Shown piece after piece: positions 6,007 through 61,400 of a DNA stretch of 64,000 nt. The notes under the pieces are model-generated. The model was not told the DNA's origin. It made no database searches and saw only the letters and a program-made list of their open reading frames with translations. Numbering within the stretch: the stretch's first letter is position 1; every line of letters begins with the position of its first letter. Source of the DNA: Mimachlamys varia (Eukaryota > Mollusca > Bivalvia > Pectinida > Pectinidae); assembly GCA_947623455.1 (NCBI GenBank), contig OX392545.1:21488001-21552000 (forward strand). Reading direction: 5' to 3'. The position numbers and the translations under genes are program-made.

Positions 6007-6177
6007 TTTTATCGATGAAGCAGAAGACGCTTAGTCTTCCGGAACACCTGGTCTTATTCTCTTGTGCTTTTACGAGAGTCCCCATGTAAATCTTTCCTTT
6101 GTTCCTATTTTGCCCCTAGTTTAATCGATTTTGAGTTCGGATTATGGTTTTGTTGACGCTTTGGTATTCTCTGTTTT
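6007..6177 (+). mobile_element. retroelement 3'-tail repeat, copy 1
   Basis: About 170 bases shared with four other places: 13255-13435 (-), 18740-18925 (-), 27545-27740 (-) and 28440-28625 (+). Conserved blocks are GAAGCAGAAGACGCTTA, CCCCATGTAAATC and GATTTTGAGTTCGGATTATGG. At 13.4 and 28 kb the same tail follows reverse-transcriptase remnants. It therefore appears to be the 3' part of an RT-bearing element, here 5'-truncated inside an intron. Confidence 0.7.
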
Positions 6178-6192
6178 TTGTTTTGTCACCAG

Positions 6193-32028: not shown

Positions 32029-32290
32029 ACCCATATGAAATATTATGTTCATAGGAGATGGCTTCATAAGTTGTCATAACTTGTGCCAAATAATTTATTG
32101 TTCTTATTTTGGACAATAAAATAAGGTTAAAGACAATACAAAGTCCACATTTATCTTTTAGAACACATTTTACTTGATATATGCTGATTTTTTCTGTCAA
32201 TACTATTTTGCAGAATGGAAGAATTTCACAAACCTAGTTTTTATCTTGGTTGTTTCAGTACATCTTCTTTCACGTCTTACTACGTCCTCG

Positions 32291-32608
32291 ATATCCAGGG
32301 GTTACGATCACCTACGCTCTCTACATCTCGGGAATCATCCTCGATATCCAGGGGTTACGATCACCTACGCTCTCTACATCTCGGGAATCATCCTCGATAT
32401 CCAGGGGTTACGATCACCTACGCTCTCTACATCTCGGGAATCATCCTCGATATCCAGGGGTTACGATCACCTACGCTCTCTACATCTCGGGAATCATCCT
32501 CGATATCCAGGGGTTACGATCACCTACGCTCTCTACATCTCGGGAATCATCCTCGATATCCAGGGGTTACGATCACCTATGCTCTCTACACCCCTGGAAT
32601 ATGTCATA
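32291..32608 (+). repeat. 53-bp minisatellite, six near-identical units
   Basis: Units ATATCCAGGGGTTACGATCA, CCTACGCTCTCTACATCTCG, GGAATCATCCTCG. Spacing is exactly 53 bp and units are virtually identical. All three frames are open across it because 53 is not a multiple of three and no stop is in the unit; these frames are not genes. Degenerate relatives lie at 33170-33480. Confidence 0.92.
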
Positions 32609-33741: not shown

Positions 33742-33885
33742 TAGGTGAATGTAATCCCTGGATATCGAAGATAATTCCAAAGGTGTAGAGAGCAAAGGTG
33801 AGGGTAACCCCTGGATATCGAGGATAATTCCAAAGGTGTAGAGAGCAAAGGTGAGTGTAATCCCTGGATATCGAGGATGAATGAG
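33742..33885 (-). repeat. 53-bp minisatellite, inverted block
   Basis: On the minus strand, TCGATATCCAGGGGTTACCC, CTCACCTTTGCTCTCTACAC and CTTTGGAATTATCC repeat 2.7 times with 53-bp spacing. This is the unit of 32291-32608 in the opposite orientation, moderately diverged. Confidence 0.8.
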
Positions 33886-36371: not shown

Positions 36372-37456
36372 CTAATGCTGAGATTTCTGTGTGACTGAGT
36401 TCGGGAGGAGAATGTGTTGCTTGGAAACAGGAATGACGGCTGCCATTCGATGTATACTAACTGAAGTTATTCCTTCAGTTTTCTGACTGTTGAACATTGG
36501 ACTGTGTTTTTTGGAAATGATAGCAGGGAGTGATTCCTTCCTGATTTCTGCACTGGTGGACTTAATGACAGGTTTACTGCGCAGAGGCAGCAGACTAACA
36601 GGAACACAGAAAGGATTCAGAGTATACAGAGACGGTTTCTTTGGAATCTCGGACGGGTCCTCAATAACTCGTTCATGTCTTACTGGCATAACTTTCCTTA
36701 ACCCTGCAGGCCTGCCTGGTCCCCTCCAATACATTTCCTGGTTTGTCTGAGAGGAATCGGCTCCGACAGAATCATCCGGTTTCTTAAAAACGCCCTTGGG
36801 CGGTCGACCAAGAGCTTTCCTTTTTCTGGAAGAGGTTGGTTCTTCAGCACATTTTTCTGTTGATTCATTAGTGTTTTTATTGTCTTTGCGAACAACATAA
36901 GAGTCAGGCTGAGGATGTGATCCAGTCACATCAGCAGCAACTCTCCGGCGTTTAGGTGGCAGACCCCTGTCTGCCCCTTCCTCACCTTGAACCTGTATGC
37001 GATCACTACCAGTGTTGGGACGTCCAGCCCCTACACCCTCCTTGTTCCCCTTCACCTTTTTACTGTCAATACCTCCTCCTTCAGCAGCCTCATCATCACT
37101 GTTCACAATATTTTTGCTAACAATAATATCAGTTTCTCTTCTAATGTTAAATTCCACCTCGCTATTTTTATGTCGTTTCTTGGGTGGACCTAGTTGTTTC
37201 TGAGCTGTGGGGACTGGGCCGGTTGATTTTTCCGAGTTGTGTGATAAAATCATGGTTTTATTTATTTCCTGGATTTGTCTTGACATAGCTGTAGAAGTTG
37301 TACTCGAACTAGGCGTAGAAGACACTGTTGAGGTAGCTGGACTGGTAGAACTCTGCCGAGTAGAAGAGGGTGCACTTGTTTCACCAGGGTCAGTGTTGTT
37401 GCCTCCAGATTCTTCTTTCACTACCACTTTAGATGCATTTTCAAATTCTTTAAAAT
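36372..37456 (-). CDS. exon F (last coding exon): basic AT-hook-like tail
   Basis: Acceptor TCTCACTTGTAG|AT. Its first two bases complete a GAT codon with the G left by exon E. It encodes [19 protein letters not shown], a Ser/Thr-rich run, [35 protein letters not shown] (about 36780-36830), [12 protein letters not shown] (about 36700-36735) and ends [11 protein letters not shown]. 360 residues. Plus-strand open frames here are shadows. Confidence 0.85.
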
Positions 37457-40400
37457 CTACAAGTGAGAATATTATAAAGTTAACAGTGAAATTAAAGTTA
37501 CTTGAATCTAAACAAAAAGAATATCACCTGAAACTTAATCAAAACACGAGAGAACTTAACAAGGTACTTGGGCTGCATATGTATCGTATTGATCTATTAT
37601 GACCCTGTTCTAAGTGCACTATTTATCTATTATGGCCCTGTTGAGAGGGCACTATTGCCTCATAGTATTGTTGAGGGATGAAATAGTGCTTGAGCTGAAG
37701 GTGAGGGCACTATCTCATCACGAGACAATACTATGAGGCAATAGTGCCCTTTCAACAGGGCCATAATGGGTTTAGTACAGCACCCTTCCATTTAAATATA
37801 AATGTATACAAAAGTTTCGTTTTTGTTGTGCTATATCATGGCCAGTTTCGGGTCGTTTCCAGAGGCAGCCATTTTCTAGCAGAATAGTAGCAAGACGTTA
37901 TAGTGACGTAACTTAATAGTGACGTCATAATAGATTCACGTTGAACATCGCGCCAAATCTGATAGTGCCCCGAAGAGCGGGCACTATCACTTCATAGTAC
38001 CAATGTGTATAGCCAATTGGAAGGCAGCATTTAGTCATGTGATGTACTAATTATCTATTATGGGGCTGTTCTGAGGGCACTATTGCCTCATAGTATTGTC
38101 GAGGGATGGAATAGTGCCTGAGCCGAAGGCGAGGGCACTATCTCATCACGAAACAATACTATGAGGCAATAGTGCCCTCACAACAGGGCCATAATGGATT
38201 TAGTACATCACCCTTCCATTTAAATACACACGTATACACAAGAATTTGTTTTATTGTGCTAGACCATCCAGCTTTGGGTCGTTTCCAGAGTCAGCCATTT
38301 TCTAGGAGAACAGTAGCATTGTGTAATAGTGATGCAACTTAAAAGTGACGTCATAATAGATCAAGTTGAGCATCGTGCCAAATCTGATAGAACCCGGGTA
38401 AGCAGGCACTATCCCTTTATAGTACCCATGTGTATAGCTAATGGGAAGGCAGAATTCAGTCACATGATGTACTAATGGATTGTATTCCGATATTTTCTTA
38501 TTTTCATCACTTAACTAATTAACTTATTTTCATCACTGAAATAATTAACTAATTTTCATCACTTAAATAATTATTTTATTTTCATCTGACTGATAATCTT
38601 TCAATCCTTCAGATCAGATGTGCTCCTCTGTGAAGTAAATCATAAAAGTATATAAACTTAATTATAGAAATGATACTAAACTATTTGTTGCTGGTATTTA
38701 ATATTGAAGACTCTTGACAAAACTGTATTCAATCCATGTCACTCAATCATCAGTGATATAACCTTTTTAGCAGCTATTTTTGTCTAAATACCATTAGAAA
38801 GAGACGGGCTGATTAGCTAAATACCATTAGAAAGAGACAAGCCGATTGGCTACATACCATTAGAAAGAGACAGGCTGATTGGCTACATACCATTAGAAAG
38901 AGACAGGCTGATTGGCTACATACCATTAGAGAGAGACAAGCCGATTGGCTACATACCATTAGAGAGAGACAGGCTGATTGGCTACATACCATTAGAGAGA
39001 GACAAGCCGATTGGCTACATACCATTAGAGAGAGACAGGCTGATTGGCTACATACCATTAGAGAGAGGCAAGCCGATTGGCTACATACCATTAGAGAGAG
39101 ACGGGCTGATTGGCTACATACCATTAGAGAGAGACAAGCTGATTGGCTACATACCATTAGAGGCTGATTGACTACATACCATTAGAGAGACACAAGCTGA
39201 TTGGCTACATACCATTAGACAGAGACAGGCTGATTGACTACATACCATTAGAGAGAGGCAAGCTGATTGGCTACATACCATTAGAGAGAGACAGGCTGAT
39301 TGGCTACATACCATTAGAGAGAGACAGGCTGATTGGCTACATACCATTAGAGAGAGACAGACTGATTGGCTACATACCATTAGAGAGAGACAGACTGATT
39401 GGCTACATACCATTAGAGAGAGACAGACTGATTGGCTACATACCATTAGAGAGAGACAGACTGATTGGCTACATACCATTAGAGAGAGACAGGCTGATTG
39501 GCTACATACCATTAGAGAGAGACAGGCTGATTAACTACATACCATTAGAGAGAGACAGGCTGATTGGCTACATACCAATAGAGAGAGACGGGCTGATTGG
39601 CTACATACCATTAGAGAGAGACGGGCCGATTGACTACATACCATTAGAGAGAGGCAGGCTGATTGGCTACATACCATTAGAGAGAGACAGACTGATTGGC
39701 TACATACCATTAGAGAGAGACAGACTGATTGGCTACATACCATTAGAGAGAGACAGACTGATTGGCTACATACCATTAGAGAGAGACAGGCTGATTGGCT
39801 ACATACCATTAGAGAGAGACAGGCTGATTAACTACATACCATTAGAGAGAGACAGGCTGATTGGCTACATACCAATAGAGAGAGACGGGCTGATTGGCTA
39901 CATACCATTAGAGAGAGACGGGCTGATTGACTACATACAATTAGAGAGCGATGGGCTGATTAGCTACATACCATTAGAGAGAGACAGGCTGATTGGCTAC
40001 ATACCATTAGAGAGAGACAAGCCGATTGGCTACATACCATTAGAGAGAGACAGGTCGATTGGCTACATACCATTATAGAGAGGCAGGCTGATTGACTACA
40101 TACCATTAGAGAGATGGGCTGATTGGCTACATACCATTAGAGAGAGACGGGCTGATTGGCTACATACCATTAGAGAGAGACAGGCTGATTGGCTACATAC
40201 CATTAGAGAGAGGCAGGCTGATTGACTACATACCATTAGAGAGAGGCGGGCTGATTGGCTACATACCATTAGAGAGAGACGGGCTGATTGGCTACATACC
40301 ATTAGAGAGAGGCAGGCTGATTGGCTACATACCATTAGAGAGAGACAAGCCGATTGGCTACATACCATTAGAGAGAGACAGGCTGATTGGCTACATACCA

Positions 40401-43400
40401 TTAGAGAGAGACAAGCCGATTGGCTACATACCATTAGAGAGAGACAGGCTGATTGGCTACATACCATTAGAGAGAGGCAAGCCGATTGGCTACATACCAT
40501 TAGAGAGAGACGGGCTGATTGGCTACATACCATTAGAGAGAGACAAGCTGATTGGCTACATACCATTAGAGGCTGATTGACTACATACCATTAGAGAGAC
40601 ACAAGCTGATTGGCTACATACCATTAGACAGAGACAGGCTGATTGACTACATACCATTAGAGAGAGGCAAGCTGATTGGCTACATACCATTAGAGAGAGA
40701 CAGGCTGATTGGCTACATACCATTAGAGAGAGACAGGCTGATTGGCTACATACCATTAGAGAGAGACAGACTGATTGGCTACATACCATTAGAGAGAGAC
40801 AGACTGATTGGCTACATACCATTAGAGAGAGACAGACTGATTGGCTACATACCATTAGAGAGAGACAGACTGATTGGCTACATACCATTAGAGAGAGACA
40901 GGCTGATTGGCTACATACCATTAGAGAGAGACGGGCTGATTAACTACATACCATTAGAGAGAGACAGGCTGATTGGCTACATACCAATAGAGAGAGACGG
41001 GCTGATTGGCTACATACCATTAGAGAGAGACGGGCCGATTGACTACATACCATTAGAGAGAGGCAGGCTGATTGGCTACATACCATTAGAGAGAGACAGA
41101 CTGATTGGCTACATACCATTAGAGAGAGACAGACTGATTGGCTACATACCATTAGAGAGAGACAGACTGATTGGCTACATACCATTAGAGAGAGACAGGC
41201 TGATTGGCTACATACCATTAGAGAGAGACAGGCTGATTAACTACATACCATTAGAGAGAGACAGGCTGATTGGCTACATACCAATAGAGAGAGACGGGCT
41301 GATTGGCTACATACCATTAGAGAGAGACGGGCTGATTGACTACATACAATTAGAGAGCGATGGGCTGATTAGCTACATACCATTAGAGAGAGACAGGCTG
41401 ATTGGCTACATACCATTAGAGAGAGACAAGCCGATTGGCTACATACCATTAGAGAGAGACAGGTCGATTGGCTACATACCATTATAGAGAGGCAGGCTGA
41501 TTGACTACATACCATTAGAGAGATGGGCTGATTGGCTACATACCATTAGAGAGAGACGGGCTGATTGGCTACATACCATTAGAGAGAGACAGGCTGATTG
41601 GCTACATACCATTAGAGAGAGGCAGGCTGATTGACTACATACCATTAGAGAGAGGCGGGCTGATTGGCTACATACCATTAGAGAGAGACGGGCTGATTGG
41701 CTACATACCATTAGAGAGAGGCAGGCTGATTGGCTACATACCATTAGAGAGAGACAGGCTGATTGGCTACATACCATTAGAGAGAGGCGGGCTGATTGGC
41801 TACATACCATTAGAGAGAGGCAGGCTGATTGACTACATACCATTAGAGAGAGACAGACTGATTGGCTACATACCATTAGAGAGAGACAGGCTGATTGGCT
41901 ACATACCATTAGAGAGAGGTGGGCTGATTGACTACATACCATTAGAGAGAGACAGACTGATTGGCTACATACCATTAGACAGAGATGGGCTGATTGGCTA
42001 CATACCATTAGAGAGAGACAGGCTGATTGACTACATACCATTAGAGAGAGACAGGCTGATTGACTACAGACCATTAGAGAGAGACAGGCTGATTGACTAC
42101 ATACCATTAGAGAGAGATGGGCTGATTGGCTACATACCATTAGAGAGAGACAGGCTGATTGACTACATACCATTAGAGAGAGGCAGGCTGATTGGCTACA
42201 TACCATTAGAGAGAGGTGGGCTGATTGACTACATACCATTAGAGAGAGGCAGGCTGATTGGCTACATACCATTAGAGAGAGGCAGGCTGATTGACTACAT
42301 ACCATTAGAGAGAGGCAGGCTGATTGGCTACATACCATTAGAGAGAGGTGGGCTGATTGACTACATACCATTAGAGAGAGACAGGCCGATTGGCTACATA
42401 CCATTAGAGAGAGACGGGCCAATTGGCTACATACCATTAGAGAGAGACGGGCCGATTGGCTACATACCATTAGAGAGAGACGGACTGATTGACTACATAC
42501 CATTAGAGAGAGACGGACTGATTGACTACATACCATTAGAGAGAGACGGGCTGATTGGCTACATACCATTAGAGAGAGACGGGCCAATTGGCTACATACC
42601 ATTAGAGAGAGACAGGCCGATTGGCTACATACCATTAGAGAGAGACAGACCGACTGGCTACATACCATTAGAGAGAGACGGGCTGATTGGCTACATACCA
42701 TTAGAGAGAGACAGACTGATTGGCTACATACCATTAGAGAGAGACAGGCGGATTGGCTACATACCATTAGAGAGAGACAGGCTGATTGGCTACATACCAT
42801 TAGACAGAGACAAGCTGATTGGCTACATACCATTAGAGAGAGACAGGCTGATTGGCTACATACCATTAGAGAGACAGGCCGACTGGCTACATACCATTAG
42901 AGAGAGACAGGCCGATTGGCTAAATACCATTATAGAGAGACAAGCTGATTGGCTACATACCATTAGAGAGAGACAAGCTGATTGGCTACATACCATTAGA
43001 GAGAGATAAGCTGATTGGCTACATACCATTAGAGAGAGACAAGCTGATTGACTACATACCATTAGAGAGAGATAGGCCGATTGACTACATACCATTAGAG
43101 AAAGACAGGCCGATTGACTACATACCATTAGAGAGAGACAGGCCGATTGACTACATACCATTAGAGAGAGACAGGCTGATTGACTACATACCATTAGAGA
43201 GAGACAGGCTGATTGACTACATACCATTAGAGAGAGACAGGCTGATTGACTACATACCATTAGAGAGAGACAGACCGACTGGCTACATACCATTAGAGAG
43301 AGACAGGCTGATTGACTACATACCATTAGAGAGAGACAGACCGACTGGCTACATACCATTAGAGAGAGACGGGCCGATTGGCTACATACCATTAGAGAGA

Positions 43401-46400
43401 GACAAGCCGATTGACTACATACCATTACAGAGAGACAAGCTGATTGACTACATACCATTAGAGAGAGACAGGCCGCTTGGTTACATACCATTAGAGAGAG
43501 ACAGGCCGATTGACTACATACCATTAGAGAGAGACAGGCCGATTGACTACATACCATTAGAGAGAGACAGGCTGATTGGCTACATACCATTAGAGAGAGA
43601 CAGGCTGATTGGCTACATACCATTAGAGAGAGACAGGCTGATTGACTACATACCATTAGAGAGAGACAGACCGACTGACTACATACCATTAGAGAGAGAC
43701 AGACCGACTGGCTACATACCATTAGAGAGAGACAGGCTGATTGGCTACATACCATTAGAGAGAGACAGGCCGATTGGCTACATACCATTAGAGAGAGACA
43801 GGCTGATTGGCTACATACCATTAGAGAGAGACGGGCTGATTGGCTACATACCATTAGAGAGAGACAGGCCGATTGGCTACATACCATTAGAGAGAGACAG
43901 GCTGATTGGCTACATACCATTAGAGAGAGACAGGCTGATTGGCTACATACCATTAGAGAGACAGGCCGACTGGCTACATACCATCAGAGAGAGATAGGCC
44001 GATTGGCTACATACCATTAGAGAGAGACGGGCTGATTGGCTACATACCATTAGAGAGAGACGGGCCGATTGGCTACATACCATTAGAGAGAGACGGACTG
44101 ATTGACTACATACCATTAGAGAGAGACGGGCTGATTGACTACATACCATTAGAGAGAGACGGGCTGATTGGCTACATACCATTAGAGAGAGACGGGCTGA
44201 TTGACTACATACCATTAGAGAGAGAAGGGCTGATTGACTACATACCATTAGAGAGAGGCAGGCTGATTGGCTACATACCATTAGACAGAGACGGGCTGAT
44301 TGGCTACATACCATTAGAGAGAGACAGACTGATTGACTACATACCATTAGAGAGAGACAGACCGACTGGCTACATACCATTAGAGAGAGACGGGCTGATT
44401 GGCTACATACCATTAGAGAGAGACAGACTGATTGGCTACACACCATTAGAGAGAGACAGGCGGATTGGCTACATACCATTAGAGAGAGACAGGCTGATTG
44501 GCTACATACCATTAGAGAGAGACGGGCCAATTGGCTACATACCATTAGAGAGAGACAGGCCGATTGGCTACATACCATTAGAGAGAGACAGACCGACTGG
44601 CTACATACCATTAGAGAGAGACGGGCTGATTGGCTACATACCATTAGAGAGAGACAGACTGATTGACTACATACCATTAGAGAGAGACAGGCCGCTTGGT
44701 TACATACCATTAGAGAGAGACAGGCCGATTGACTACATACCATTAGAGAGAGACAGGCCGATTGACTACATACCATTAGAGAGAGACAGGCTGATTGGCT
44801 ACATACCATTAGAGAGAGACAGGCTGATTGGCTACATACCATTAGAGAGAGACAGGCTGATTGACTACATACCATTAGAGAGAGACAGACCGACTGACTA
44901 CATACCATTAGAGAGAGACAGACCGACTGGCTACATACCATTAGAGAGAGACAGGCTGATTGGCTACATACCATTAGAGAGAGACGGGCTGATTGACTAC
45001 ATACCATTAGAGAGAGACAGACTGATTGACTACATACCATTAGAGAGAGACAGGCCGATTGGCTACATACCATTAGAGAGAGACGGGCCAATTGGCTACA
45101 TACCATTAGAGAGAGACGGGCCGATTGGCTACATACCATTAGAGAGAGACGGACTGATTGACTACATACCATTAGAGAGAGACGGACTGATTGACTACAT
45201 ACCATTAGAGAGAGACGGGCTGATTGGCTACATACCATTAGAGAGAGACGGGCCAATTGGCTACATACCATTAGAGAGAGACAGGCCGATTGGCTACATA
45301 CCATTAGAGAGAGACAGACCGACTGGCTACATACCATTAGAGAGAGACGGGCTGATTGGCTACATACCATTAGAGAGAGACAGACTGATTGGCTACATAC
45401 CATTAGAGAGAGACAGGCGGATTGGCTACATACCATTAGAGAGAGACAGGCTGATTGGCTACATACCATTAGACAGAGACAAGCTGATTGGCTACATACC
45501 ATTAGAGAGAGACAGGCTGATTGGCTACATACCATTAGAGAGACAGGCCGACTGGCTACATACCATTAGAGAGAGACAGGCCGATTGGCTAAATACCATT
45601 ATAGAGAGACAAGCTGATTGGCTACATACCATTAGAGAGAGACAAGCTGATTGGCTACATACCATTAGAGAGAGATAAGCTGATTGGCTACATACCATTA
45701 GAGAGAGACAAGCTGATTGACTACATACCATTAGAGAGAGATAGGCCGATTGACTACATACCATTAGAGAAAGACAGGCCGATTGACTACATACCATTAG
45801 AGAGAGACAGGCCGATTGACTACATACCATTAGAGAGAGACGGGCCGATTGGCTACATACCATTAGAGAGAGACAAGCCGATTGACTACATACCATTACA
45901 GAGAGACAAGCTGATTGACTACATACCATTAGAGAGAGACAGGCCGCTTGGTTACATACCATTAGAGAGAGACAGGCCGATTGACTACATACCATTAGAG
46001 AGAGACAGGCCGATTGACTACATACCATTAGAGAGAGACAGGCTGATTGGCTACATACCATTAGAGAGAGACAGGCTGATTGGCTACATACCATTAGAGA
46101 GAGACAGGCTGATTGACTACATACCATTAGAGAGAGACAGACCGACTGACTACATACCATTAGAGAGAGACAGACCGACTGGCTACATACCATTAGAGAG
46201 AGACAGGCTGATTGGCTACATACCATTAGAGAGAGACGGGCTGATTGACTACATACCATTAGAGAGAGACAGACTGATTGACTACATACCATTAGAGAGA
46301 CACAGGCCGATTGACTACATACCATTAGAGAGAGACGGGCCAATTGGCTACATACCATTAGAGAGAGATGGGCCGATTGGCTACATACCATTAGAGAGAG

Positions 46401-49400
46401 ACGGACTGATTGACTACATACCATTAGAGAGAGACGGACTGATTGACTACATACCATTAGAGAGAGACGGGCTGATTGGCTACATACCATTAGAGAGAGA
46501 CAGGCTGATTGACTACATACCATTAGAGAGAGACGGGCTGATTGGCTACATACCATTAGAGAGAGACAGACCGACTGGCTACATACCATTAGAGAGAGAC
46601 AGGCCGATTGACTACATACCATTAGAGAGAGACGGGCTGATTGGCTACATACCATTAGAGAGAGACGGGCTGATTGACTACATACCATTAGAGAGAGACA
46701 GGCTGATTGGCTACATACCATTAGAGAGAGACAGACCGACTGGCTACATACCATTAGAGAGAGACAGACTGATTGGCTACATACCATTAGTGAGAGACAA
46801 GCCGATTGACTACATACCATTAGAGAGAGACAGGCTGATTGGCTACATACCATTAGAGAGAGACAGGCTGATTGGCTACATACCATTAGAGAGAGACAGG
46901 CTGATTGACTACATACCATTAGAGAGAGGCAGACTGATTGACTACATACCATTAGAGAGAGACAGGCCAATTGGCTACATACCATTAGAGAGAGACAGAC
47001 CGACTGGCTACATACCATTAGAGAGAGACGGGCTGATTGGCTACATACCATTAGAGAGAGACAGACCGACTGGCTACATACCATTAGAGAGAGACGGACT
47101 GATTGGCTACATACCATTAGAGAGAGACAGGCTGATTGACTACATACCAATAGAGAGAGACAGGCTGATTGACTACATACCATTAGAGAGAGACAGACCG
47201 ACTGGCTACATACCATTAGAGAGAGACAGGCTGATTGGCTACATACCATTAGAGAGAGACAGGCTGATTGACTACATTCCAATAGAGAGAGACATGCTGA
47301 TTGACTACATACCATTAGAGAGAGGCAGACTGATTGGCTACATACCATTAGAGAGAGGCAGACTGATTGACTACATACCATTAGAGAGAGACAGGCTGAT
47401 TGACTACATACCATTAGAGAGAGACAGGCTGATTGACTACATACAATTAGAGAGAGACAGACTGATTGGCTACATACCATTAGAGAGAGACAGACTGATT
47501 GACTACATACCATTAGAGAGAGACAGACTGATTGACTACATACCATTAGAGAGAGGCAGACTGATTGACTACATACCATTAGAGAGAGACAGGCTGATTG
47601 ACTACATACCATTAGAGAGAGACAGACTGATTGACTACATACCATTAGAGAGAGACAAGCTGATTGACTACATACCATTAGAGAGAGACGGGCTGATTGG
47701 CTACATACCATTAGAGAGAGACGGGCTGATTGGCTACATACCATTAGAGAGAGACAGACTGATTGGCTACACACCATTAGAGAGAGACAGGCGGATTGGC
47801 TACATACCATTAGAGAGAGACAGGCTGATTGGCTACATACCATTAGAGAGAGGCGGGCTGATTGGCTACATACCATTAGAGAGAGACGGGCTGATTGGCT
47901 ACATACCATTAGAGAGAGACAGACTGATTGGCTACATACCATTAGAGAGAGACAGACTGATTGGCTACATACCATTAGAGAGAGGCAGACTGATTGACTA
48001 CATACCATTAGAGAGAGACAGGCCGATTGGCTACATACCATTAGAGAGAGACGGACTGATTGGCTACATACCATTAGAGAGAGACAGGCTGATTGGCTAC
48101 ATACAATTAGAGAGAGACGGGCTGATTGGCTACATACCACTAGAGAGAGACGGGCTGATTGGCTACATACCATTAGAGAGAGACAGACTGATTGGCTACA
48201 TACCATTAGAGAGAGACGGGCCGATTGGCTACATACCATTAGAGAGAGACAAGCCGATTGACTACATACCATTACAGAGAGACAAGCTGATTGACTACAT
48301 ACCATTAGAGAGACAGGCCGATTGACTACATACCATTAGAGAGAGACGGGCCGATTGGCTACATACCATTAGAGAGAGACAAGCCGATTGACTACATACC
48401 ATTACAGAGAGACAAGCTGATTGACTACATACCATTAGAGAGAGACAGGCCGCTTGGTTACATACCATTAGAGAGAGACAGGCCGATTGACTACATACCA
48501 TTAGAGAGAGACAGGCCGATTGACTACATACCATTAGAGAGAGACAGGCTGATTGGCTACATACCATTAGAGAGAGACAGGCTGATTGGCTACATACCAT
48601 TAGAGAGAGACAGGCTGATTGACTACATACCATTAGAGAGAGACAGACCGACTGACTACATACCATTAGAGAGAGACAGACCGACTGGCTACATACCATT
48701 AGAGAGAGACAGGCTGATTGGCTACATACCATTAGAGAGAGACGGGCTGATTGACTACATACCATTAGAGAGAGACAGACTGATTGACTACATACCATTA
48801 GAGAGAGACAGGCCGATTGGCTACATACCATTAGAGAGAGACGGGCCAATTGGCTACATACCATTAGAGAGAGACGGGCCGATTGGCTACATACCATTAG
48901 AGAGAGACGGACTGATTGACTACATACCATTAGAGAGAGACGGACTGATTGACTACATACCATTAGAGAGAGACGGGCTGATTGGCTACATACCATTAGA
49001 GAGAGACGGGCCAATTGGCTACATACCATTAGAGAGAGACAGGCCGATTGGCTACATACCATTAGAGAGAGACAGACCGACTGGCTACATACCATTAGAG
49101 AGAGACGGGCTGATTGGCTACATACCATTAGAGAGAGACAGACTGATTGGCTACATACCATTAGAGAGAGACAGGCGGATTGGCTACATACCATTAGAGA
49201 GAGACAGGCTGATTGGCTACATACCATTAGACAGAGACAAGCTGATTGGCTACATACCATTAGAGAGAGACAGGCTGATTGGCTACATACCATTAGAGAG
49301 ACAGGCCGACTGGCTACATACCATTAGAGAGAGACAGGCCGATTGGCTAAATACCATTATAGAGAGACAAGCTGATTGGCTACATACCATTAGAGAGAGA

Positions 49401-52400
49401 CAAGCTGATTGGCTACATACCATTAGAGAGAGATAAGCTGATTGGCTACATACCATTAGAGAGAGACAAGCTGATTGACTACATACCATTAGAGAGAGAT
49501 AGGCCGATTGACTACATACCATTAGAGAAAGACAGGCCGATTGACTACATACCATTAGAGAGAGACAGGCCGATTGACTACATACCATTAGAGAGAGACG
49601 GGCCGATTGGCTACATACCATTAGAGAGAGACAAGCCGATTGACTACATACCATTACAGAGAGACAAGCTGATTGACTACATACCATTAGAGAGAGACAG
49701 GCCGCTTGGTTACATACCATTAGAGAGAGACAGGCCGATTGACTACATACCATTAGAGAGAGACAGGCCGATTGACTACATACCATTAGAGAGAGACAGG
49801 CTGATTGGCTACATACCATTAGAGAGAGACAGGCTGATTGGCTACATACCATTAGAGAGAGACAGGCTGATTGACTACATACCATTAGAGAGAGACAGAC
49901 CGACTGACTACATACCATTAGAGAGAGACAGACCGACTGGCTACATACCATTAGAGAGAGACAGGCTGATTGGCTACATACCATTAGAGAGAGACGGGCT
50001 GATTGACTACATACCATTAGAGAGAGACAGACTGATTGACTACATACCATTAGAGAGAGACAGGCCGATTGGCTACATACCATTAGAGAGAGACGGGCCA
50101 ATTGGCTACATACCATTAGAGAGAGATGGGCCGATTGGCTACATACCATTAGAGAGAGACGGACTGATTGACTACATACCATTAGAGAGAGACGGACTGA
50201 TTGACTACATACCATTAGAGAGAGACGGGCTGATTGGCTACATACCATTAGAGAGAGACAGGCTGATTGACTACATACCATTAGAGAGAGACGGGCTGAT
50301 TGGCTACATACCATTAGAGAGAGACAGACCGACTGGCTACATACCATTAGAGAGAGACAGGCCGATTGACTACATACCATTAGAGAGAGACGGGCTGATT
50401 GGCTACATACCATTAGAGAGAGACGGGCTGATTGACTACATACCATTAGAGAGAGACAGGCTGATTGGCTACATACCATTAGAGAGAGACAGACCGACTG
50501 GCTACATACCATTAGAGAGAGACAGACTGATTGGCTACATACCATTAGTGAGAGACAAGCCGATTGACTACATACCATTAGAGAGAGACAGGCTGATTGG
50601 CTACATACCATTAGAGAGAGACAGGCTGATTGGCTACATACCATTAGAGAGAGACAGGCTGATTGACTACATACCATTAGAGAGAGGCAGACTGATTGAC
50701 TACATACCATTAGAGAGAGACAGGCCAATTGGCTACATACCATTAGAGAGAGACAGACCGACTGGCTACATACCATTAGAGAGAGACGGGCTGATTGGCT
50801 ACATACCATTAGAGAGAGACAGACCGACTGGCTACATACCATTAGAGAGAGACGGACTGATTGGCTACATACCATTAGAGAGAGACAGGCTGATTGACTA
50901 CATACCAATAGAGAGAGACAGGCTGATTGACTACATACCATTAGAGAGAGACAGACCGACTGGCTACATACCATTAGAGAGAGACAGGCTGATTGGCTAC
51001 ATACCATTAGAGAGAGACAGGCTGATTGACTACATTCCAATAGAGAGAGACATGCTGATTGACTACATACCATTAGAGAGAGGCAGACTGATTGGCTACA
51101 TACCATTAGAGAGAGGCAGACTGATTGACTACATACCATTAGAGAGAGACAGGCTGATTGACTACATACCATTAGAGAGAGACAGGCTGATTGACTACAT
51201 ACAATTAGAGAGAGACAGACTGATTGGCTACATACCATTAGAGAGAGACAGACTGATTGACTACATACCATTAGAGAGAGACAGACTGATTGACTACATA
51301 CCATTAGAGAGAGGCAGACTGATTGACTACATACCATTAGAGAGAGACAGGCTGATTGACTACATACCATTAGAGAGAGACAGACTGATTGACTACATAC
51401 CATTAGAGAGAGACAAGCTGATTGACTACATACCATTAGAGAGAGACGGGCTGATTGGCTACATACCATTAGAGAGAGACGGGCTGATTGGCTACATACC
51501 ATTAGAGAGAGACAGACTGATTGGCTACACACCATTAGAGAGAGACAGGCGGATTGGCTACATACCATTAGAGAGAGACAAGCTGATTGGCTACATACCA
51601 TTAGAGAGAGGCGGGCTGATTGGCTACATACCATTAGAGAGAGACGGGCTGATTGGCTACATACCATTAGAGAGACAGGCCGACTGGCTACATACCATTA
51701 GAGAGAGACAGGCCGATTGGCTAAATACCATTATAGAGAGACAAGCTGATTGGCTACATACCATTAGAGAGAGACAAGCTGATTGGCTACATACCATTAG
51801 AGAGAGATAAGCTGATTGGCTACATACCATTAGAGAGAGACAAGCTGATTGACTACATACCATTAGAGAGAGATAGGCCGATTGACTACATACCATTAGA
51901 GAAAGACAGGCCGATTGACTACATACCATTAGAGAGAGACAGGCCGATTGACTACATACCATTAGAGAGAGACGGGCCGATTGGCTACATACCATTAGAG
52001 AGAGACAAGCCGATTGACTACATACCATTACAGAGAGACAAGCTGATTGACTACATACCATTAGAGAGAGACAGGCCGCTTGGTTACATACCATTAGAGA
52101 GAGACAGGCCGATTGACTACATACCATTAGAGAGAGACAGGCCGATTGACTACATACCATTAGAGAGAGACAGGCTGATTGGCTACATACCATTAGAGAG
52201 AGACAGGCTGATTGGCTACATACCATTAGAGAGAGACAGGCTGATTGACTACATACCATTAGAGAGAGACAGACCGACTGACTACATACCATTAGAGAGA
52301 GACAGACCGACTGGCTACATACCATTAGAGAGAGACAGGCTGATTGGCTACATACCATTAGAGAGAGACGGGCTGATTGACTACATACCATTAGAGAGAG

Positions 52401-55400
52401 ACAGACTGATTGACTACATACCATTAGAGAGAGACAGGCCGATTGGCTACATACCATTAGAGAGAGACGGGCCAATTGGCTACATACCATTAGAGAGAGA
52501 TGGGCCGATTGGCTACATACCATTAGAGAGAGACGGACTGATTGACTACATACCATTAGAGAGAGACGGACTGATTGACTACATACCATTAGAGAGAGAC
52601 GGGCTGATTGGCTACATACCATTAGAGAGAGACAGGCTGATTGACTACATACCATTAGAGAGAGACGGGCTGATTGGCTACATACCATTAGAGAGAGACA
52701 GACCGACTGGCTACATACCATTAGAGAGAGACAGGCCGATTGACTACATACCATTAGAGAGAGACGGGCTGATTGGCTACATACCATTAGAGAGAGACGG
52801 ACTGATTGACTACATACCATTAGAGAGAGACAGGCTGATTGGCTACATACCATTAGAGAGAGACAGACCGACTGGCTACATACCATTAGAGAGAGACAGA
52901 CTGATTGGCTACATACCATTAGTGAGAGACAAGCCGATTGACTACATACCATTAGAGAGAGACAGGCTGATTGGCTACATACCATTAGAGAGAGACAGGC
53001 TGATTGGCTACATACCATTAGAGAGAGACAGGCTGATTGACTACATACCATTAGAGAGAGGCAGACTGATTGACTACATACCATTAGAGAGAGACAGGCC
53101 AATTGGCTACATACCATTAGAGAGAGACAGACCGACTGGCTACATACCATTAGAGAGAGACGGGCTGATTGGCTACATACCATTAGAGAGAGACAGACCG
53201 ACTGGCTACATACCATTAGAGAGAGACGGACTGATTGGCTACATACCATTAGAGAGAGACAGGCTGATTGACTACATACCAATAGAGAGAGACAGGCTGA
53301 TTGACTACATACCATTAGAGAGAGACAGACCGACTGGCTACATACCATTAGAGAGAGACAGGCTGATTGGCTACATACCATTAGAGAGAGACAGGCTGAT
53401 TGACTACATTCCAATAGAGAGAGACATGCTGATTGACTACATACCATTAGAGAGAGGCAGACTGATTGGCTACATACCATTAGAGAGAGGCAGACTGATT
53501 GACTACATACCATTAGAGAGAGACAGGCTGATTGACTACATACCATTAGAGAGAGACAGGCTGATTGACTACATACAATTAGAGAGAGACAGACTGATTG
53601 GCTACATACCATTAGAGAGAGACAGACTGATTGACTACATACCATTAGAGAGAGACAGACTGATTGACTACATACCATTAGAGAGAGGCAGACTGATTGA
53701 CTACATACCATTAGAGAGAGACAGGCTGATTGACTACATACCATTAGAGAGAAACAGACTGATTGACTACATACCATTAGAGAGAGACAAGCTGATTGAC
53801 TACATACCATTAGAGAGAGACGGGCTGATTGGCTACATACCATTAGAGAGAGACGGGCTGATTGGCTACATACCATTAGAGAGAGACAGACTGATTGGCT
53901 ACACACCATTAGAGAGAGACAGGCGGATTGGCTACATACCATTAGAGAGAGACAGGCTGATTGGCTACATACCATTAGAGAGAGGCGGGCTGATTGGCTA
54001 CATACCATTAGAGAGAGACGGGCTGATTGGCTACATACCATTAGAGAGAGACAGACTGATTGGCTACATACCATTAGAGAGAGACAGACTGATTGGCTAC
54101 ATACCATTAGAGAGAGGCAGACTGATTGACTACATACCATTAGAGAGAGACAGGCCGATTGGCTACATACCATTAGAGAGAGACGGACTGATTGGCTACA
54201 TACCATTAGAGAGAGACAGGCTGATTGGCTACATACAATTAGAGAGAGACGGGCTGATTGGCTACATACCATTAGAGAGAGACGGGCTGATTGGCTACAT
54301 ACCATTAGAGAGAGACAGACTGATTGGCTACATACCATTAGAGAGAGACGGGCTGATTGGCTACATACCATTAGAGAGAGGCAGACTGATTGACTACATA
54401 CCATTAGAGAGAGACGGGCTGATTGGCTACATACCATTAGAGAGAGACGGGCTGATTGGCTACATACCATTATAGAGAGACAGACTGATTGGCTACACAC
54501 CATTAGAGAGAGACAGGCGGATTGGCTACATACCATTAGAGAGAGACAGGCTGATTGGCTACATACCATTAGAGAGAGACGGGCCAATTGGCTACATACC
54601 ATTAGAGAGAGACAGGCCGATTGGCTACATACCATTAGAGAGAGACAGACCGACTGGCTACATACCATTAGAGAGAGACGGGCTGATTGGCTACATACCA
54701 TTAGAGAGAGACAGACTGATTGGCTACATACCATTAGAGAGAGACAGGCGGATTGGCTACATACCATTAGAGAGAGACAGGCTGATTGGCTACATACCAT
54801 TAGACAGAGACAAGCTGATTGGCTACATACCATTAGAGAGAGACAGGCTGATTGGCTACATACCATTAGAGAGACAGGCCGACTGGCTACATACCATTAG
54901 AGAGAGACAGGCCGATTGGCTAAATACCATTATAGAGAGACAAGCTGATTGGCTACATACCATTAGAGAGAGACAAGCTGATTGGCTACATACCATTAGA
55001 GAGAGACAAGCTGATTGGCTAAATACCATTAGAGAGAGACAAGCTGATTGACTACATACCATTAGGGAGAGACAGGCCGATTGACTACATACCATTAGAG
55101 AGAGACAGGCCGATTGACTACATACCATTAGAGAGAGACAGGCCGATTGACTACATACCATTAGAGAGAGACGGGCCGATTGGCTACATACCATTAGAGA
55201 GAGACAAGCCGATTGACTACATACCATTACAGAGAGACAAGCTGATTGACTACATACCATTAGAGAGAGACAGGCCGCTTGGTTACATACCATTAGAGAG
55301 AGACAGGCCGATTGGCTACATACCATTAGAGAGAGACAGGCCGATTGACTACATACAATTAGAGAGAGACAGACTGATTGGCTACATACCATTAGAGAGA

Positions 55401-58400
55401 GACGGGCTGATTGGCTACATACCATTAGAGAGAGACAGGCTGATTGGCTACATACCATTAGAGAGAGACAGGCTGATTGACTACATACCATTAGAGAGAG
55501 ACGGACTGATTGGCTACATACAATTAGAGAGAGACAGGCTGATTGACTACATACCATTAGAGAGAGACAGACTGATTGACTACATACCATTAGAGAGAGA
55601 CAGGCCGACTGGCTACATACCATTAGAGAGAGACAGGCTGATTGACTACATACCATTAGAGAGAGACAGACTGATTGACTACATACCATTAGAGAGAGAC
55701 AGGCCGATTGGCTACATACCATTAGAGAGAGATGGGCCAATTGGCTACATACCATTAGAGAGAGACGGGCCGATTGGCTACATACCATTAGAGAGAGACA
55801 GGCTGATTGGCTACATACCATTAGAGAGAGACAGGCTGATTGACTACATACCATTAGAGAGAGACGGGCCAATTGGCTACATACCATTAGACAGAGACAA
55901 GCTGATTGGCTACATACCATTAGAGAGAGACAGGCTGATTGGCTACATACCATTAGAGAGAGACAGGCTGATTGACTACATACCATTAGAGAGAGACAGG
56001 CTGATTGGCTACATACCATTAGAGAGAGACGGGCTGATTGGCTACATACCATTAGAGAGAGACGGGCTGATTGGCTACATACAATTAGAGAGAGACAAGC
56101 TGATTGACTACATACCATTAGAGAGAGACAGGCTGATTGGCTACATACCATTAGAGAGAGACAAGCTGATTGACTACATACCATTAGAGAGAGACGGACT
56201 GATTGGCTACATACAATTAGAGAGAGACGGGCTGATTGACTACATACCATTAGAGAGAGACGGACTGATTGGCTACATACCATTAGAGAGAGACGGACTG
56301 ATTGGCTACATACCATTAGAGAGAGACGGGCTGATTGGCTACATACCATTAGAGAGAGACGGGCTGATTGGCTACATACCATTAGAGAGAGACGGACTGA
56401 TTGGCTACATACCATTAGAGAGAGACGGACTGATTGGCTACATACCATTAGAGAGAGACGGACTGATTGTCTACATACCATTAGAGAGAGACAGGCTGAT
56501 TGGCTACATACAATTAGAGAGAGACAAGCTGATTGACTACATACCATTAGAGAGAGACAAGCTGATTGGCTACATACCATTAGAGAGAGACAAGCCGATT
56601 GGCTACATACCATTAGAGAGAGGCAGACTGATTGGCTACATACCAATAGAGAGAGACAGACCGACTGGCTACATACCATTAGAGAGAGACAGACCGACTG
56701 GCTACATACCATTAGAGAGAGACGGGCTGATTGGCTACATACCATTAGAGAGAGACAAGCCGATTGGCTACATACCATTAGTGAGAGACAGGCTGATTGG
56801 CTACATACCAATAGAGAGAGACGGACTGATTGGCTACATACCATTAGAGAGAGACGGGCTGATTGACTACATACCATTAGAGAGAGGCGGGCTGATTGGC
56901 TACATACCAATAGAGAGAGACGGACTGATTGGCTACATACCATTAGAGAGAGGCAGGCTGATTGGCTACATACAATTAGAGAGAGACAAGCCGATTGGCT
57001 ACATACCATTAGAGAGAGACAGGCTGATTGGCTACATACCAATAGAGAGAGACGGACTGATTGGCTACATACCATTAGAGAGAGGCAGGCTGATTGGCTA
57101 CATACCATTAGAGAGAGACAGGCTGATTGGCTACATACCATTAGAGAGAGACAGACTGATTGGCTACATACCAATAGAGAGAGACGGACTGATTGGCTAC
57201 ATACCATTAGAGAGAGACAAGCCGATTGGCTACATACCATTAGAGAGAGACAGGCTGATTGGCTACATACCAATAGAGAGAGACGGGCTGATTGACTACA
57301 TACCATTAGAGAGAGACAGACTGATTGGCTACATACCATTAGAGAGAGACAGGCTGATTGGCTACATACCATTAGTGAGAGACAAGCTGATTGGCTACAT
57401 CCCATTAGAGAGAGACAGACTGATTGGCTACATACCATTAGAGAGAGACTGGCCGACTGGCTACATACCATTAGAGAGAGACGGACTGATTGGCTACATA
57501 CCATTAGAGAGAGACGGACTGATTGGCTACATACCATTAGAGAGAGACAGGCTGATTGGCTACATACCATTAGAGAGAGACAGGCTGATTGGCTACATTC
57601 CATTAGAGAGATGGGCCAATTGATCTACATTCCATTAGAGAGAGACGGGCCAATTGATCTACATTCCATTAGAGAGAGACGGGCCAATTGATCTACATTC
57701 CATTAGAGAGAGACGGGCTGATTGACTACATACCATTAGAGAGAGCCTTGCGTGCTTGTCTGATGAACATCTGGTTGTTTTGTGTGTCAACTTTGCTGGA
57801 TAGAAGCTTGTACTTCCACTTCATCACTTGTCTCTGTCTCTTCGTGTTCGACATCGCAATCTTATCAACCACCCCGTGGAGTAAGTCAAGCATGACTGCA
57901 CTCTCTATAACAAACAAAAACAAGGTGAGCTCACTCAACCACGCCATGGAGTAAGTCAAGCATGACTGCACTCTCTGTAACAAACAAAAACAAAGTGAGC
58001 TCACTCAACCACGCTGTGGAGTAAGTCAAGCATGACTGCACTCTCTGTAACAAACAAAAACAAAGTGAGCTCACTCAACCACGCCATGGAGTAAGTCAAA
58101 CATGACTGCACTCTCTGTAACAAACAAATACAAAGTGAGCTCACTCAACCACGCCATGGAGTAAGTCAAACATGACTGCACTCTCTGTAACAAACAAATA
58201 CAAAGTGAGCTCACTCAACCACGCCGTGGAGTAAGTCAAGCATGACTGCACTCTCTGTAACAAACAAATACAAAGTGAGCTCACTCAACCACGCCGTGGA
58301 GTAAGTCAAGCATGACTGCACTCTCTGTAACAAACAAATACAAAGTGAGCTCACTCAACCACGCCGTGGAGTAAGTCAAGCATGACTGCACTCTCTGTAA

Positions 58401-61400
58401 CAAACAAAAACAAAGTGAGCTCGCTCAACCACGCCGTGGAGTAAGTCAAGCATGACTGCACTCTCTGTAACAAACAAATACAAAGTGAGCTCACTCAACC
58501 ACGCCGTGGAGTAAGTCAAGCATGACTGCACTCTCTGTAACAAACAAAAACAAAGTGAGCTCACTCAACCCCGCCGTGGAGTAAGTCAAGCATGACTGCA
58601 CTCTCTGTAACAAACAAAAACAAAGTGAGCTCACTCAACCCCGCCATGGAGTAAGTCAAGCATGACTGCACTCTCTGTAACAAACAAATACAAAGTGAGC
58701 TCACTCAACCACGCCATGGAGTAAGTCAAACATGACTGCACTCTCTGTAACAAACAAATACAAAGTGAGCTCACTCAACCACGCCATGGAGTAAGTCAAA
58801 CATGACTGCACTCTCTGTAACAAACAAAAACAAAGTGAGCTCACTCAACCACGCCGTGGAGTAAGTCAAACATGACTGCACTCTCTGTAACAAACAAAAA
58901 CAAAGTGAGCTCACTCAACCACGCCATGGAGTAAGTCAAGCATGACTGCACTCTCTGTAACAAACAAAAACAAAGTGAGCTCACTCAACCACGCCATGGA
59001 GTAAGTCAAACATGACTGCACTCTCTGTAACAAACAAATACAAAGTGAGCTCACTCAACCACGCCATGGAGTAAGTCAAACATGACTGCAATCTCTGTAA
59101 CAAATACAGTGGACTCCACTTAATATCACCCCTGTTAATAACACATTCCTCTTTATATTGTAAATGCACACACCCATGCATGTACACAAAATGATTACTA
59201 TATACCCTCTTTACCTAAGTGAGGGGTATAATAAGGAAAATTACACCTGAAAATTCAAGGAAAGAAAATACAGTGGATCCCAGTGATTATTACATCTTGA
59301 GACAAAAGCAGCGCTATAAAGACCATAATCTGTGAAACAAATATTGTAATAAAATTAGGCAGATACTCAACCTAACTTACCAAGTGGCCCCAGGAGGGGG
59401 AGTTCTTTCCCCTCTAAAACAAGGGCGAGATATTGATAGATGGCCTTGTAGTCAGGTGTCCTTTCAGCAGGCGTTGGATGATTATCAAAACAGCTTATAA
59501 TAGACGTAGCCTGTAAAAAATGCAAAAATGTTTTCATGTCATAATGATTAAACCTAGCAAGTTTGAAAGATATCAATTTAAAACTGTAGAAGATCTCTAG
59601 ACAAACAACAATTTACAACAGAAATGCATTTTCTGCATGTAAATGCCTATATTTTGCAATTGCAAATACGCAATGTTGTTATGCGAAAAGTTGAAATAAC
59701 TCAACAAAACCCGTAATAAACGTTTAATGTTATAGCTATTCGAAGTACCATACAAAATTTAAGAGGAATTGAATAAAAAGCATAAAACTTCTGTCATTTT
59801 TTACATACGGTCTGAAATTGCATCAGATATGAATTCCAAAGGGCCATAATTCAGGAAAACACATCTTCATGTCATGATGATTAAGCCTAGCAAGTTTGAA
59901 AGATATCGGTTGAAAACTGTAGAAGATCTCCGGACAAATAACAGTTTACAACAGAAATGCATTTTCTACATTATGCCTACAATGTATATTTAACTAAGAA
60001 ATGCTGTTCCGCAAAAAGTTGAAATAACTTAACAAAACCCGTAATATATATGTTAAATATTATAGCAATTCTAAGTACCATACAAAATTTTAGAGGCTAA
60101 CAGTTACACTCATCCTGGCTACACCTGGGAATGCTAACAGTTACTTTCACCCTGGCTACACCTGGGAATGCTAACAGTTACACTCACCCTGGCTACACCT
60201 GGGAATGCTAACAGTTACACTCACCCTGGCTACACCTGGGAATGCTAACAGTTACTTTCACCCTGGCTACACCTGGGAATGCTAACAGTTTCACTCACCC
60301 TGGCTACACCTGGTAATGCTAACAGTTACACTCACCTTGGCTACACCTGGTAATGCTAACAGTTACACTCACCCTGGCTACACCTAGAAATGTCAACAGT
60401 TACACTCACCCTGGCTACACCTGGGAATGTAAACAGTTACACTCACCCTGGCTACACCTGGGAATGCTAACAGTTACACTCACCCTGGCTACACCTGGGA
60501 ATGCTAACAGTTACACTCACCCTGGCTACACCTGGGAATGCTAACAGTTTCACTCACCCTGGCTTCACCTAGAAATGTCAACAGTTACACTCACCCTGGC
60601 TACACCTGGTAATGCTAACAGTTACACTCACCCTGGCTACACCTGGGAATATAAACAGTTACACCTGGGAATGTAAACAGTTACACTCACCCTCGCTACA
60701 CCTAGAAATGTCAACAGTTACACTCACCCTGACTACACCTGGGAATGCTAACAGTTACACTCACCCTAGCTACACCTGGGAATGCTAACAGTTACACTCA
60801 CCCTAGCTAAGCTGTCGGTGTAATCTTTCCTCTCTGTTCTCACCAGATCCCTCGCCATGTTGATCCAGTCCTATGTGTCAATGATAGCATTTTAAAATTA
60901 TCACAGTTAACCACATCTTAAACAACAATGAACCTCAGTAACAAGTTACAAGGCTAGATATTCCTGTTCAGTTTTCAAAAATGAAATTGCTCATAGAGTT
61001 CATAGCTCCTAACCCCTTTCAACCCTGAAGACCATAATGGATTAATCTAGGAAATGCATGGTAGAGTTAATTAAAGTAACATAGGGGTGGAAGGGGCAAA
61101 ACCAAAAAGCAGGTACAGTCTACTGCTTCAGTATTTAATTTTTGTCAAAATAGTCAAAGACAACACATACATCTAAGAATTTTAATACTGATATCCAGTA
61201 TAACAGGGATTCAAAAGTTTTGGTCACTTTACAGTGTTTTCGCTTCCTTGATTTTACAGCAGCCTGTACAATTGCTCCATTACTCATCTGTAATGCTAGT
61301 AGGGCTGTATAGTTGGAAATCTAGATAGCTTTAAACTACAATTGTAATACAGAAGCCAAACATTATACATGTACCGCATACAGTCATGAAATTCTAAAGA

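What the first reader, a model, noticed from the sequence alone, without database searches (positions are those of the whole stretch)
38784..57745. 19-kb minisatellite grown out of a 5' splice site
Seen: the 33-bp unit on the minus strand is CTCTCTCTAATG|GTATGTAG plus CAATCAGCC. Exon E ends CTCTCTCTAATG|GTATGTAG, the same text. The array therefore begins at the exon E donor and repeats exon end plus donor about 570 times through the intron. Every unit offers a GTATGT donor. A tandem array seeded on a live splice site at this scale is unusual.
Basis: partly seen in the sequence, partly recalled or inferred. Interest (0 to 1): 0.88.

Follow-up and report, generated by a model that had tools for sequence, protein, structure and literature searches.

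The report
Giant splice-site repeat brackets scallop exon
In a scallop gene that likely helps make the RNAs used for splicing, a predicted exon is bracketed by repeats of its own splice sites, 576 copies of its end and 18 of its start, a kind of repeat known from lancelets but here far larger than any we found described, and the cell likely uses only the copies that touch the exon.

Summary
On the minus strand a 33-bp unit is repeated 576 times (57745-38780). It starts with the last 12 coding bases and the donor of a predicted exon, and takes up 18,954 bases of the 20,277-base intron. Its exact 20-base seed occurs nowhere else in the held 975-Mb assembly.

The gene is a SNAPC2-like gene (snRNA-activating complex subunit 2) of the scallop Mimachlamys varia. 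Homologous proteins support the exon junctions.

A third array (37 bp, 19 copies) straddles the exon 5 donor, though its unit may be related to a dispersed repeat.

Use of any donor copy beyond the first would give an early stop. The four copies next to the true donor have lost GT.

Boundary-spanning minisatellites are known: lancelet "mirages" (a few units in the cases I saw) and the human IFI6 donor minisatellite. This is that kind in a mollusc, far larger, and on both edges of one exon. About 22% of the sampled genome is minisatellite, so growth itself is ordinary here. Splicing was not observed. A feedback role is possible but untested.

The parts
38780..57745 (-). 33-bp donor array, 576 units: last 12 nt of exon 7 + GTATGTAG + 13-nt spacer; takes up 18,954 nt of intron 7
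57734..57904 (-). Predicted exon 7 of the SNAPC2-like gene (171 nt, starts and ends in phase 1, so skipping it would keep the frame); donor G at 57733
   Evidence: homologous proteins read through both junctions
57600..57700 (-). Intronic copies 1-4 of the donor array, GT changed to GA at each (donor positions 57700, 57666, 57632, 57600); next GT donor copy is at 57567, 166 nt from the true donor
57865..59104 (-). 70-bp acceptor array, 18 units: pyrimidine-rich stretch + TTACAG + first 40 nt of exon 7 (exon and unit consensus differ at one of the 40); all 18 keep AG (17 TTACAG, exon-touching copy TTATAG)
60096..60809 (-). 37-bp donor array, 19 units: last 8 nt of exon 5 (TAGCTAGG; most copies TAGCCAGG) + GTGAGTGTAACTG...; 18 of 19 keep GT, 16 of 19 keep GTGAGT
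36372..37456 (-). Exon 8 (last coding exon, to the stop codon)
59381..59510 (-). Exon 6
60802..60870 (-). Exon 5, ends ...GCTAGG|GTGAGT
62167..62189 (-). Exon 4 (23 nt; no tblastn hit, placed by reading frame, splice signals and the protein alignment)
62897..62942 (-). Exon 3; exons 1-2 lie outside the window (67801-67473 and 64771-64711 in window numbering, locus L009)
61438..61841 (-). 29-bp array in intron 4, the one array of at least 300 bp in this gene's introns that does not touch an exon

Best explanation
The last 12 coding bases and donor splice site of a predicted exon in a scallop SNAPC2-like gene are repeated 576 times head to tail through the following intron, and splicing likely uses only the copy that touches the exon. 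Its acceptor plus first 40 coding bases is likewise repeated 18 times on the other side, so each array is a boundary-spanning minisatellite of the kind called a 'mirage' in lancelets. Shown: sequence, copy number in this assembly, uniqueness of the seed, gene model, homologue support for both junctions. Inferred growth: a short duplication straddled the exon edge and was tolerated because the exon-touching copy kept the correct reading; the array then grew by kilobase-scale segment duplication (identical runs of 45-48 units recur 114 units apart). Inferred splicing: exon 7 is defined by its innermost copies. All other copies are decoys; every decoy tested would add an early stop codon, so a mis-spliced transcript would give no full protein and would likely be degraded. 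The four decoy donors nearest the exon are dead (GT to GA), leaving 166 nt before the next GT donor copy, which may be a trace of selection against nearby decoys.
For: Array and unit structure. Seed unique in the held assembly. Gene model of 8 exons, 637 codons, all 7 introns GT-AG. Eight homologues, seven from named molluscs and one unnamed; the four closest (three named scallops and the unnamed P0004) read ...GPLESAV... and ...ALSNDF... across the two exon 7 junctions with no array residue. PF11035 (SNAPC2) is annotated on all 8 homologues. Thirteen alternative sites tried in translation all gave a premature stop (2 of the 13 are copies without GT, tried as positions only). Precedent: lancelet globin, Adh and troponin C mirages are reported not to disturb splicing or give aberrant mRNA.
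Against: No RNA was examined, so neither the junctions nor decoy use is shown. In human IFI6 a paper's introduction says two downstream repeat units are used as donors, so decoys can be live. The dead-donor stretch may be one or two mutations spread by local duplication at the edge: copies 1-3 share one spacer variant. The Pfam SNAPC2 match of this protein alone (507 of 637 aa given) is below the curated cut-off (23 against 25.5 bits). The 37-bp unit resembles a dispersed 53-bp repeat (score 27, above all 500 letter shuffles, maximum 22; two of three comparisons exceed the other arrays), so the third array may not be seeded on exon 5, and P counts it. Generic splice motifs were not clearly enriched in 35 arrays of 18 sampled stretches (for example GTRAGT 4 of 35, shuffle mean 2.4), so there is no sign that most arrays in this genome start at splice sites.
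Confidence: 0.78

Rival explanations
1. The arrays are regulatory: the decoy donors and acceptors compete with the true sites, and the share of transcripts lost to early stops or to in-frame skipping of exon 7 sets the amount of SNAPC2.
For: 568 of 576 donor copies keep GT and all 18 acceptor copies keep AG. Exon-plus-donor columns carry far fewer variants than the spacer: 51 minor-allele unit types over 20 columns against 151 over 13 columns (sums). Decoy use would give early stops. Exon 7 is 171 nt, phase 1 to phase 1. The gene would control snRNA supply (family function, recalled). IFI6 shows array donors can be used (introduction of PMC4526556).
Against: Spacer variation is mostly C/T and A/G transitions, as expected from decay of methylated CpG (recalled) and from sharing of old variants, so low donor variation need not be selection. 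The unit donor is the weakest of the 6 of 7 donors of this gene compared by pairing to U1 (-6.9 kcal/mol; others -7.2 to -12.0). Lancelet mirages are reported not to give aberrant mRNA. No related species' DNA was examined.
Confidence: 0.12
2. Plain chance: in a genome that is about one fifth minisatellite, some arrays happen to overlap exon edges and mean nothing special.
For: 21.9% of 180 kb sampled (18 stretches) lies in arrays: 35 arrays, 14 of 18 stretches with at least one. Splice motifs are not clearly enriched in them.
Against: Three of four arrays in one gene's introns straddling junctions is unlikely for randomly placed seeds (P 0.00035; 0.007 without the array that drew attention), and such seeds should be selected against. 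But the test is post hoc, one gene only, and counts the doubtful 37-bp array.
Confidence: 0.3
3. The copy number or the long-range block structure is partly an assembly artefact.
For: The array is 19 kb, longer than most HiFi reads (recalled), with identical runs of 45-48 units. Two assemblies of a lancelet gene disagree on copy number of such repeats.
Against: Assembly from 44-fold HiFi with QV 64.4 (PMC11252643, passages); 86 unit types give anchors for assembly. The exon-touching ends do not depend on copy number.
Confidence: 0.1
4. The exon edge was made from the array rather than the array from the exon (a repeat recruited as a splice site).
For: For the exon 5 donor only: the 37-bp unit resembles a dispersed 53-bp repeat that carries AAGGTGAGTGTAA.
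Against: For exon 7 the repeated coding text encodes residues conserved in the homologues (ESAVMLDLL here; DSAVMLDLM in abalones, ESGIILDLL in Solemya; ALSND in the four closest homologues), so it is older than the array; the exact 20-base seed is found nowhere else.
Confidence: 0.04

Closest known systems
[quoted passage not shown] original Adh3 paper not held), also reported for troponin C (PMC3902484, passages)
   Same: Tandem units that span an exon edge and carry the splice signal; both donor-side and acceptor-side cases; short units (10-72 bp in Adh3); authentic exon kept at the end
   Different: BflGb6 has 3 or 6 units of 150-160 bp; here 576, 18 and 19 units of 33, 70 and 37 bp; here both edges of one exon carry an array; a mollusc, not a lancelet
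[quoted passage not shown]
   Same: Two boundary-spanning repeats in one gene, each abutting a splice site
   Different: 2 or 7 and 3 or 6 copies depending on the assembly, at different exons
Human IFI6 (6-16) minisatellite giving multiple donor sites (Turri et al. 1995; title seen in reference lists of PMC2572611 and PMC4526556, paper itself not read)
   Same: A minisatellite whose units carry donor sites at the end of a coding exon
   Different: Human array is small (about 26 copies of 12 bp, recalled) and two downstream units are used as donors in mRNA (PMC4526556 introduction); here 576 copies and use unknown
Internal tandem repeats at exon-intron boundaries of human segmental-duplication genes (PMC2812944, passages read)
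   Same: Minisatellites of about 30-bp units that, at exon-intron boundaries, can change splicing
   Different: On average 4 units; expansions of exons or new introns in recent gene duplicates

Membership tests
Mirage (boundary-spanning minisatellite) | Tandem units span an exon-intron boundary, with exon and intron text in the units | tested here: met
   12 nt exon + 21 nt intron (33 bp); 40 nt exon + 30 nt intron (70 bp). For the 37-bp array: 8 nt exon, origin doubtful
Mirage (boundary-spanning minisatellite) | Many units carry the splice signal | tested here: met
   GT in 568 of 576; AG in 18 of 18; GT in 18 of 19
Mirage (boundary-spanning minisatellite) | Regular splicing is not disturbed | not testable with these tools
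   No RNA data; homologous proteins agree with use of the exon-touching copies
Mirage (boundary-spanning minisatellite) | Length instability between haplotypes or cells | not testable with these tools
   Only one haplotype held; kb-scale repeated blocks suggest recent growth
IFI6-type donor minisatellite | Downstream unit donors are used in mRNA | not testable with these tools
   No RNA data
Recursive splicing (ratchet points) | Acceptor AG directly followed by donor GT | tested here: not met
   The 33-bp unit reads AATG|GTATGT, no AG before the GT; not checked for the other two units
SNAPC2 (PF11035) | Match to the Pfam model above its curated cut-off | tested here: inconclusive
   23 bits against 25.5 for the partial protein, 507 of 637 aa; all 8 homologues carry PF11035 in precomputed annotation

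The most novel reading that the evidence does not exclude
The gene for a subunit of the factor that makes U1 and U2 snRNAs has turned both splice sites of its exon 7 into arrays, and reads the cell's splicing capacity with them: when snRNPs are plentiful, decoy donors and acceptors are used more, early stops cut SNAPC2, and snRNA synthesis falls. A splice-site array would then be a feedback sensor for spliceosome supply.
Probability: 0.05. Interest if true: 0.92.

Novelty: new variant of a known kind. Interest (0 to 1): 0.57.

Why it matters
It offers a natural test of how a cell picks one donor among hundreds of near-identical copies, and one acceptor among 18, at the same exon. It extends mirages, which in the papers I saw are described from lancelets, to molluscs and to about a hundred times more copies than the globin case. 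If arrays start at exon edges more often than chance, splice junctions may be a favoured birthplace of minisatellites. That the host gene likely serves snRNA synthesis makes a feedback role worth one direct test.

Tried and rejected
Whole-genome survey for other such arrays: planned as Pfam-located exons with their flanks (family PF00176). The tool did not complete that request (19 tries), so how common this is in the genome stays open.

Gene-free test: are splice motifs enriched in the unit consensus of 35 arrays from 18 sampled stretches? No clear excess for any of the seven motifs. I looked by eye at three of those 35 arrays with acceptor-like units and saw no convincing exon edge. A listing of open frames at array edges in the sample (35 frames) was not followed up.

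Recursive splicing: rejected for the 33-bp unit, no AG|GT. Translation of the array as protein repeats: long open frames exist because 33 is a multiple of 3, but the homologues lack such residues. Sponge for U1 by mass action: thought unlikely, since U1 is very abundant (recalled) and the unit donor pairs only moderately. Solved structures: no match for the 156-aa stretch tried.

Papers: the original amphioxus Adh3 paper was not held; Turri 1995 was seen only in reference lists. A scallop paper found by the terms tandem repeat and exon-intron junction (PMC3510168) is unrelated in its two passages.
Full report
WHERE IT IS. The window is C19:21488001-21552000 of a held assembly of 975,302,275 bp in 71 contigs. 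The lengths of contigs C1-C19 agree, 19 of 19, with the chromosome table of Mimachlamys varia xbMimVari1.1, the variegated scallop (PMC11252643, passages).

THE ARRAY. TRF: 38780-57745, period 33, 575.7 copies. My parser: 576 copies; spacings are 33 in 561 of 575, the rest 25-34. Unit on the minus strand: CTCTCTCTAATG|GTATGTAG + 13-nt spacer. GT is kept in 568 of 576 copies and |GTATGT in 554 of 576. The exact 20-mer CTCTCTCTAATGGTATGTAG occurs 473 times in the array and 473 times in the whole held assembly, none on the other strand. The same question for the 70-bp and 37-bp units did not complete.

THE GENE. The protein search gave 8 homologues: three named scallops (Mizuhopecten, Pecten, Ylistrum), one unnamed close relative (P0004), two abalones, Solemya and Mercenaria. 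tblastn with P0001-P0004 plus splice signals gives an 8-exon gene on the minus strand with a 637-codon open frame from ATG to stop; all 7 introns are GT-AG. The 23-nt exon 4 has no tblastn hit and rests on frame, splice signals and the protein alignment. PF11035, subunit 2 of the snRNA-activating complex, is annotated on all 8 homologues; the partial protein (507 of 637 aa) itself scores 23 bits against a cut-off of 25.5. I call it SNAPC2-like. Exons 1 and 2 lie beyond the window, in L009.

EXON 7 IS BRACKETED. Exon 7 is 57904-57734. Its donor junction is the first copy of the 33-bp array. Its acceptor junction is the last copy of a 70-bp array of 18 copies (57865-59104), each with a pyrimidine-rich stretch, TTACAG (17) or TTATAG (the exon-touching copy) and the first 40 coding bases. 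The copied coding text encodes residues conserved in the homologues (ESAVMLDLL, with DSAVMLDLM in abalones and ESGIILDLL in Solemya; ALSND in the four closest), so the exon is older than the arrays. A 37-bp array of 19 copies (60096-60809) straddles the exon 5 donor with 8 exonic bases.

A CAVEAT ON THE THIRD ARRAY. The 37-bp unit aligns with a dispersed 53-bp repeat seen at 32285-32590 and 33743-33878 and in L025, best score 27 against a maximum of 22 in 500 letter shuffles. Against three 53-bp consensus units (L025, 33743, 32285) it scores 22, 27 and 19; the best unrelated array scores 18, 18 and 19. So this array may have come from a dispersed repeat, though one of three comparisons shows no excess.

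CONSEQUENCES OF DECOY USE. I tried 13 alternative sites in translation: 6 distal positions of the 33-bp array, 4 of the 37-bp array, 3 upstream acceptors. All 13 gave a premature stop (278, 187, and 233 or 248 residues instead of 637). Two of the 13 are copies without GT. The stop for any distal exon 7 donor is the TAG of the first copy, which ends 8 bases past the exon end. Exon 7 is 171 nt and begins and ends in phase 1, so skipping it would keep the frame.

DEAD NEIGHBOURS. The four copies next to the true donor have GA for GT; only 8 of 576 copies lack GT, the others lying at 57402, 53411, 51037 and 47279. The next GT copy is at 57567. If all eight were independent and random the chance would be 1.6e-8, but copies 1-3 share a spacer variant, so one or two mutations spread by duplication is a fair alternative. 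The acceptor side has no such gap: the next upstream acceptor, 70 bases away, is intact.

HOW IT GREW. There are 86 unit types among 561 full-length units; identical runs of 45-48 units recur 114 units (3.8 kb) apart, and other runs 72 and 186 units apart. I read this as growth by kilobase-scale segment duplication. Variation sits in the spacer (151 minor-allele unit types over 13 columns) more than in the exon-plus-donor part (51 over 20 columns; sums), in the spacer mostly as C/T and A/G changes.

HOW UNUSUAL HERE. In 18 sampled 10-kb stretches, 35 arrays of at least 150 bp cover 21.9% of bases; 14 of 18 stretches have one. Minisatellite growth is therefore ordinary in this genome. Four arrays of at least 300 bp lie in this gene's introns; three straddle junctions. 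For randomly placed seeds P is 0.00035 for three or more of four, and 0.007 for two or more of three with the discovered one set aside. This is post hoc, one gene, and counts the doubtful 37-bp array. Splice-like motifs are not clearly enriched in the 35 sampled arrays. The planned genome-wide survey did not run.

WHAT IS KNOWN. Amphioxus 'mirages' are tandem duplications spanning intron-exon boundaries, at either edge, in Adh3 and globin genes, with 6 or 3 units in the two BflGb6 haplotypes, and RT-PCR suggests normal splicing (PMC3087553, passages). Lancelet PGBD5 has 60-bp and 108-bp repeats overlapping splice sites of two exons, with 2 or 7 and 3 or 6 copies depending on the assembly, and troponin C is also cited (PMC3902484, passages). 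Human IFI6 has a minisatellite with multiple donor sites, two downstream units of which are used (PMC4526556 introduction; Turri 1995 not read). Human genes in segmental duplications have boundary repeats that can form new introns (PMC2812944, passages). The listings of nine paper searches, one of them only for the species, and the passages read showed no molluscan case, none of this size and none on both edges of one exon; most listed papers were not opened, and most subscription journals are not in that library.

VERDICT. A real, very large, two-sided mirage in a scallop SNAPC2-like gene. Structure and origin from the exon are well supported; use of only the exon-touching copies is likely but unobserved; a role in feedback on splicing supply is a bold reading that nothing here excludes.

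Noticed in passing
window 32285-32590 and 33743-33878; L025 8591-8952: A dispersed 53-bp minisatellite family in both orientations; two of the three consensus units carry a donor-like GGTGAGTGTA and resemble the 37-bp unit at exon 5.
   Followed up: partly
L011-L028 (18 stretches of 10 kb): About 22% of sampled bases lie in minisatellites with units of 15 bp or more; the largest copy number in one array is 180.
   Followed up: partly
window 14822-16979: A 48-bp array, 44.6 copies, with what look by eye like decayed related units past its end.
   Followed up: no
window 37640-38200: Two copies, by eye, of an inverted-repeat element (GGGCACTATTGCCTCATAGTATTGT...) in the unique part of intron 7.
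   Followed up: no
window 25290-26753 (+) and 6157-7746 (+): Long open frames that look by eye like a B-box/NHL-type protein and a seven-helix receptor; not tested against families.
   Followed up: no
P0001 against window 67801-60870: The Mizuhopecten homologue model starts inside exon 5, so its N-terminal exons are missing from that gene model.
   Followed up: no
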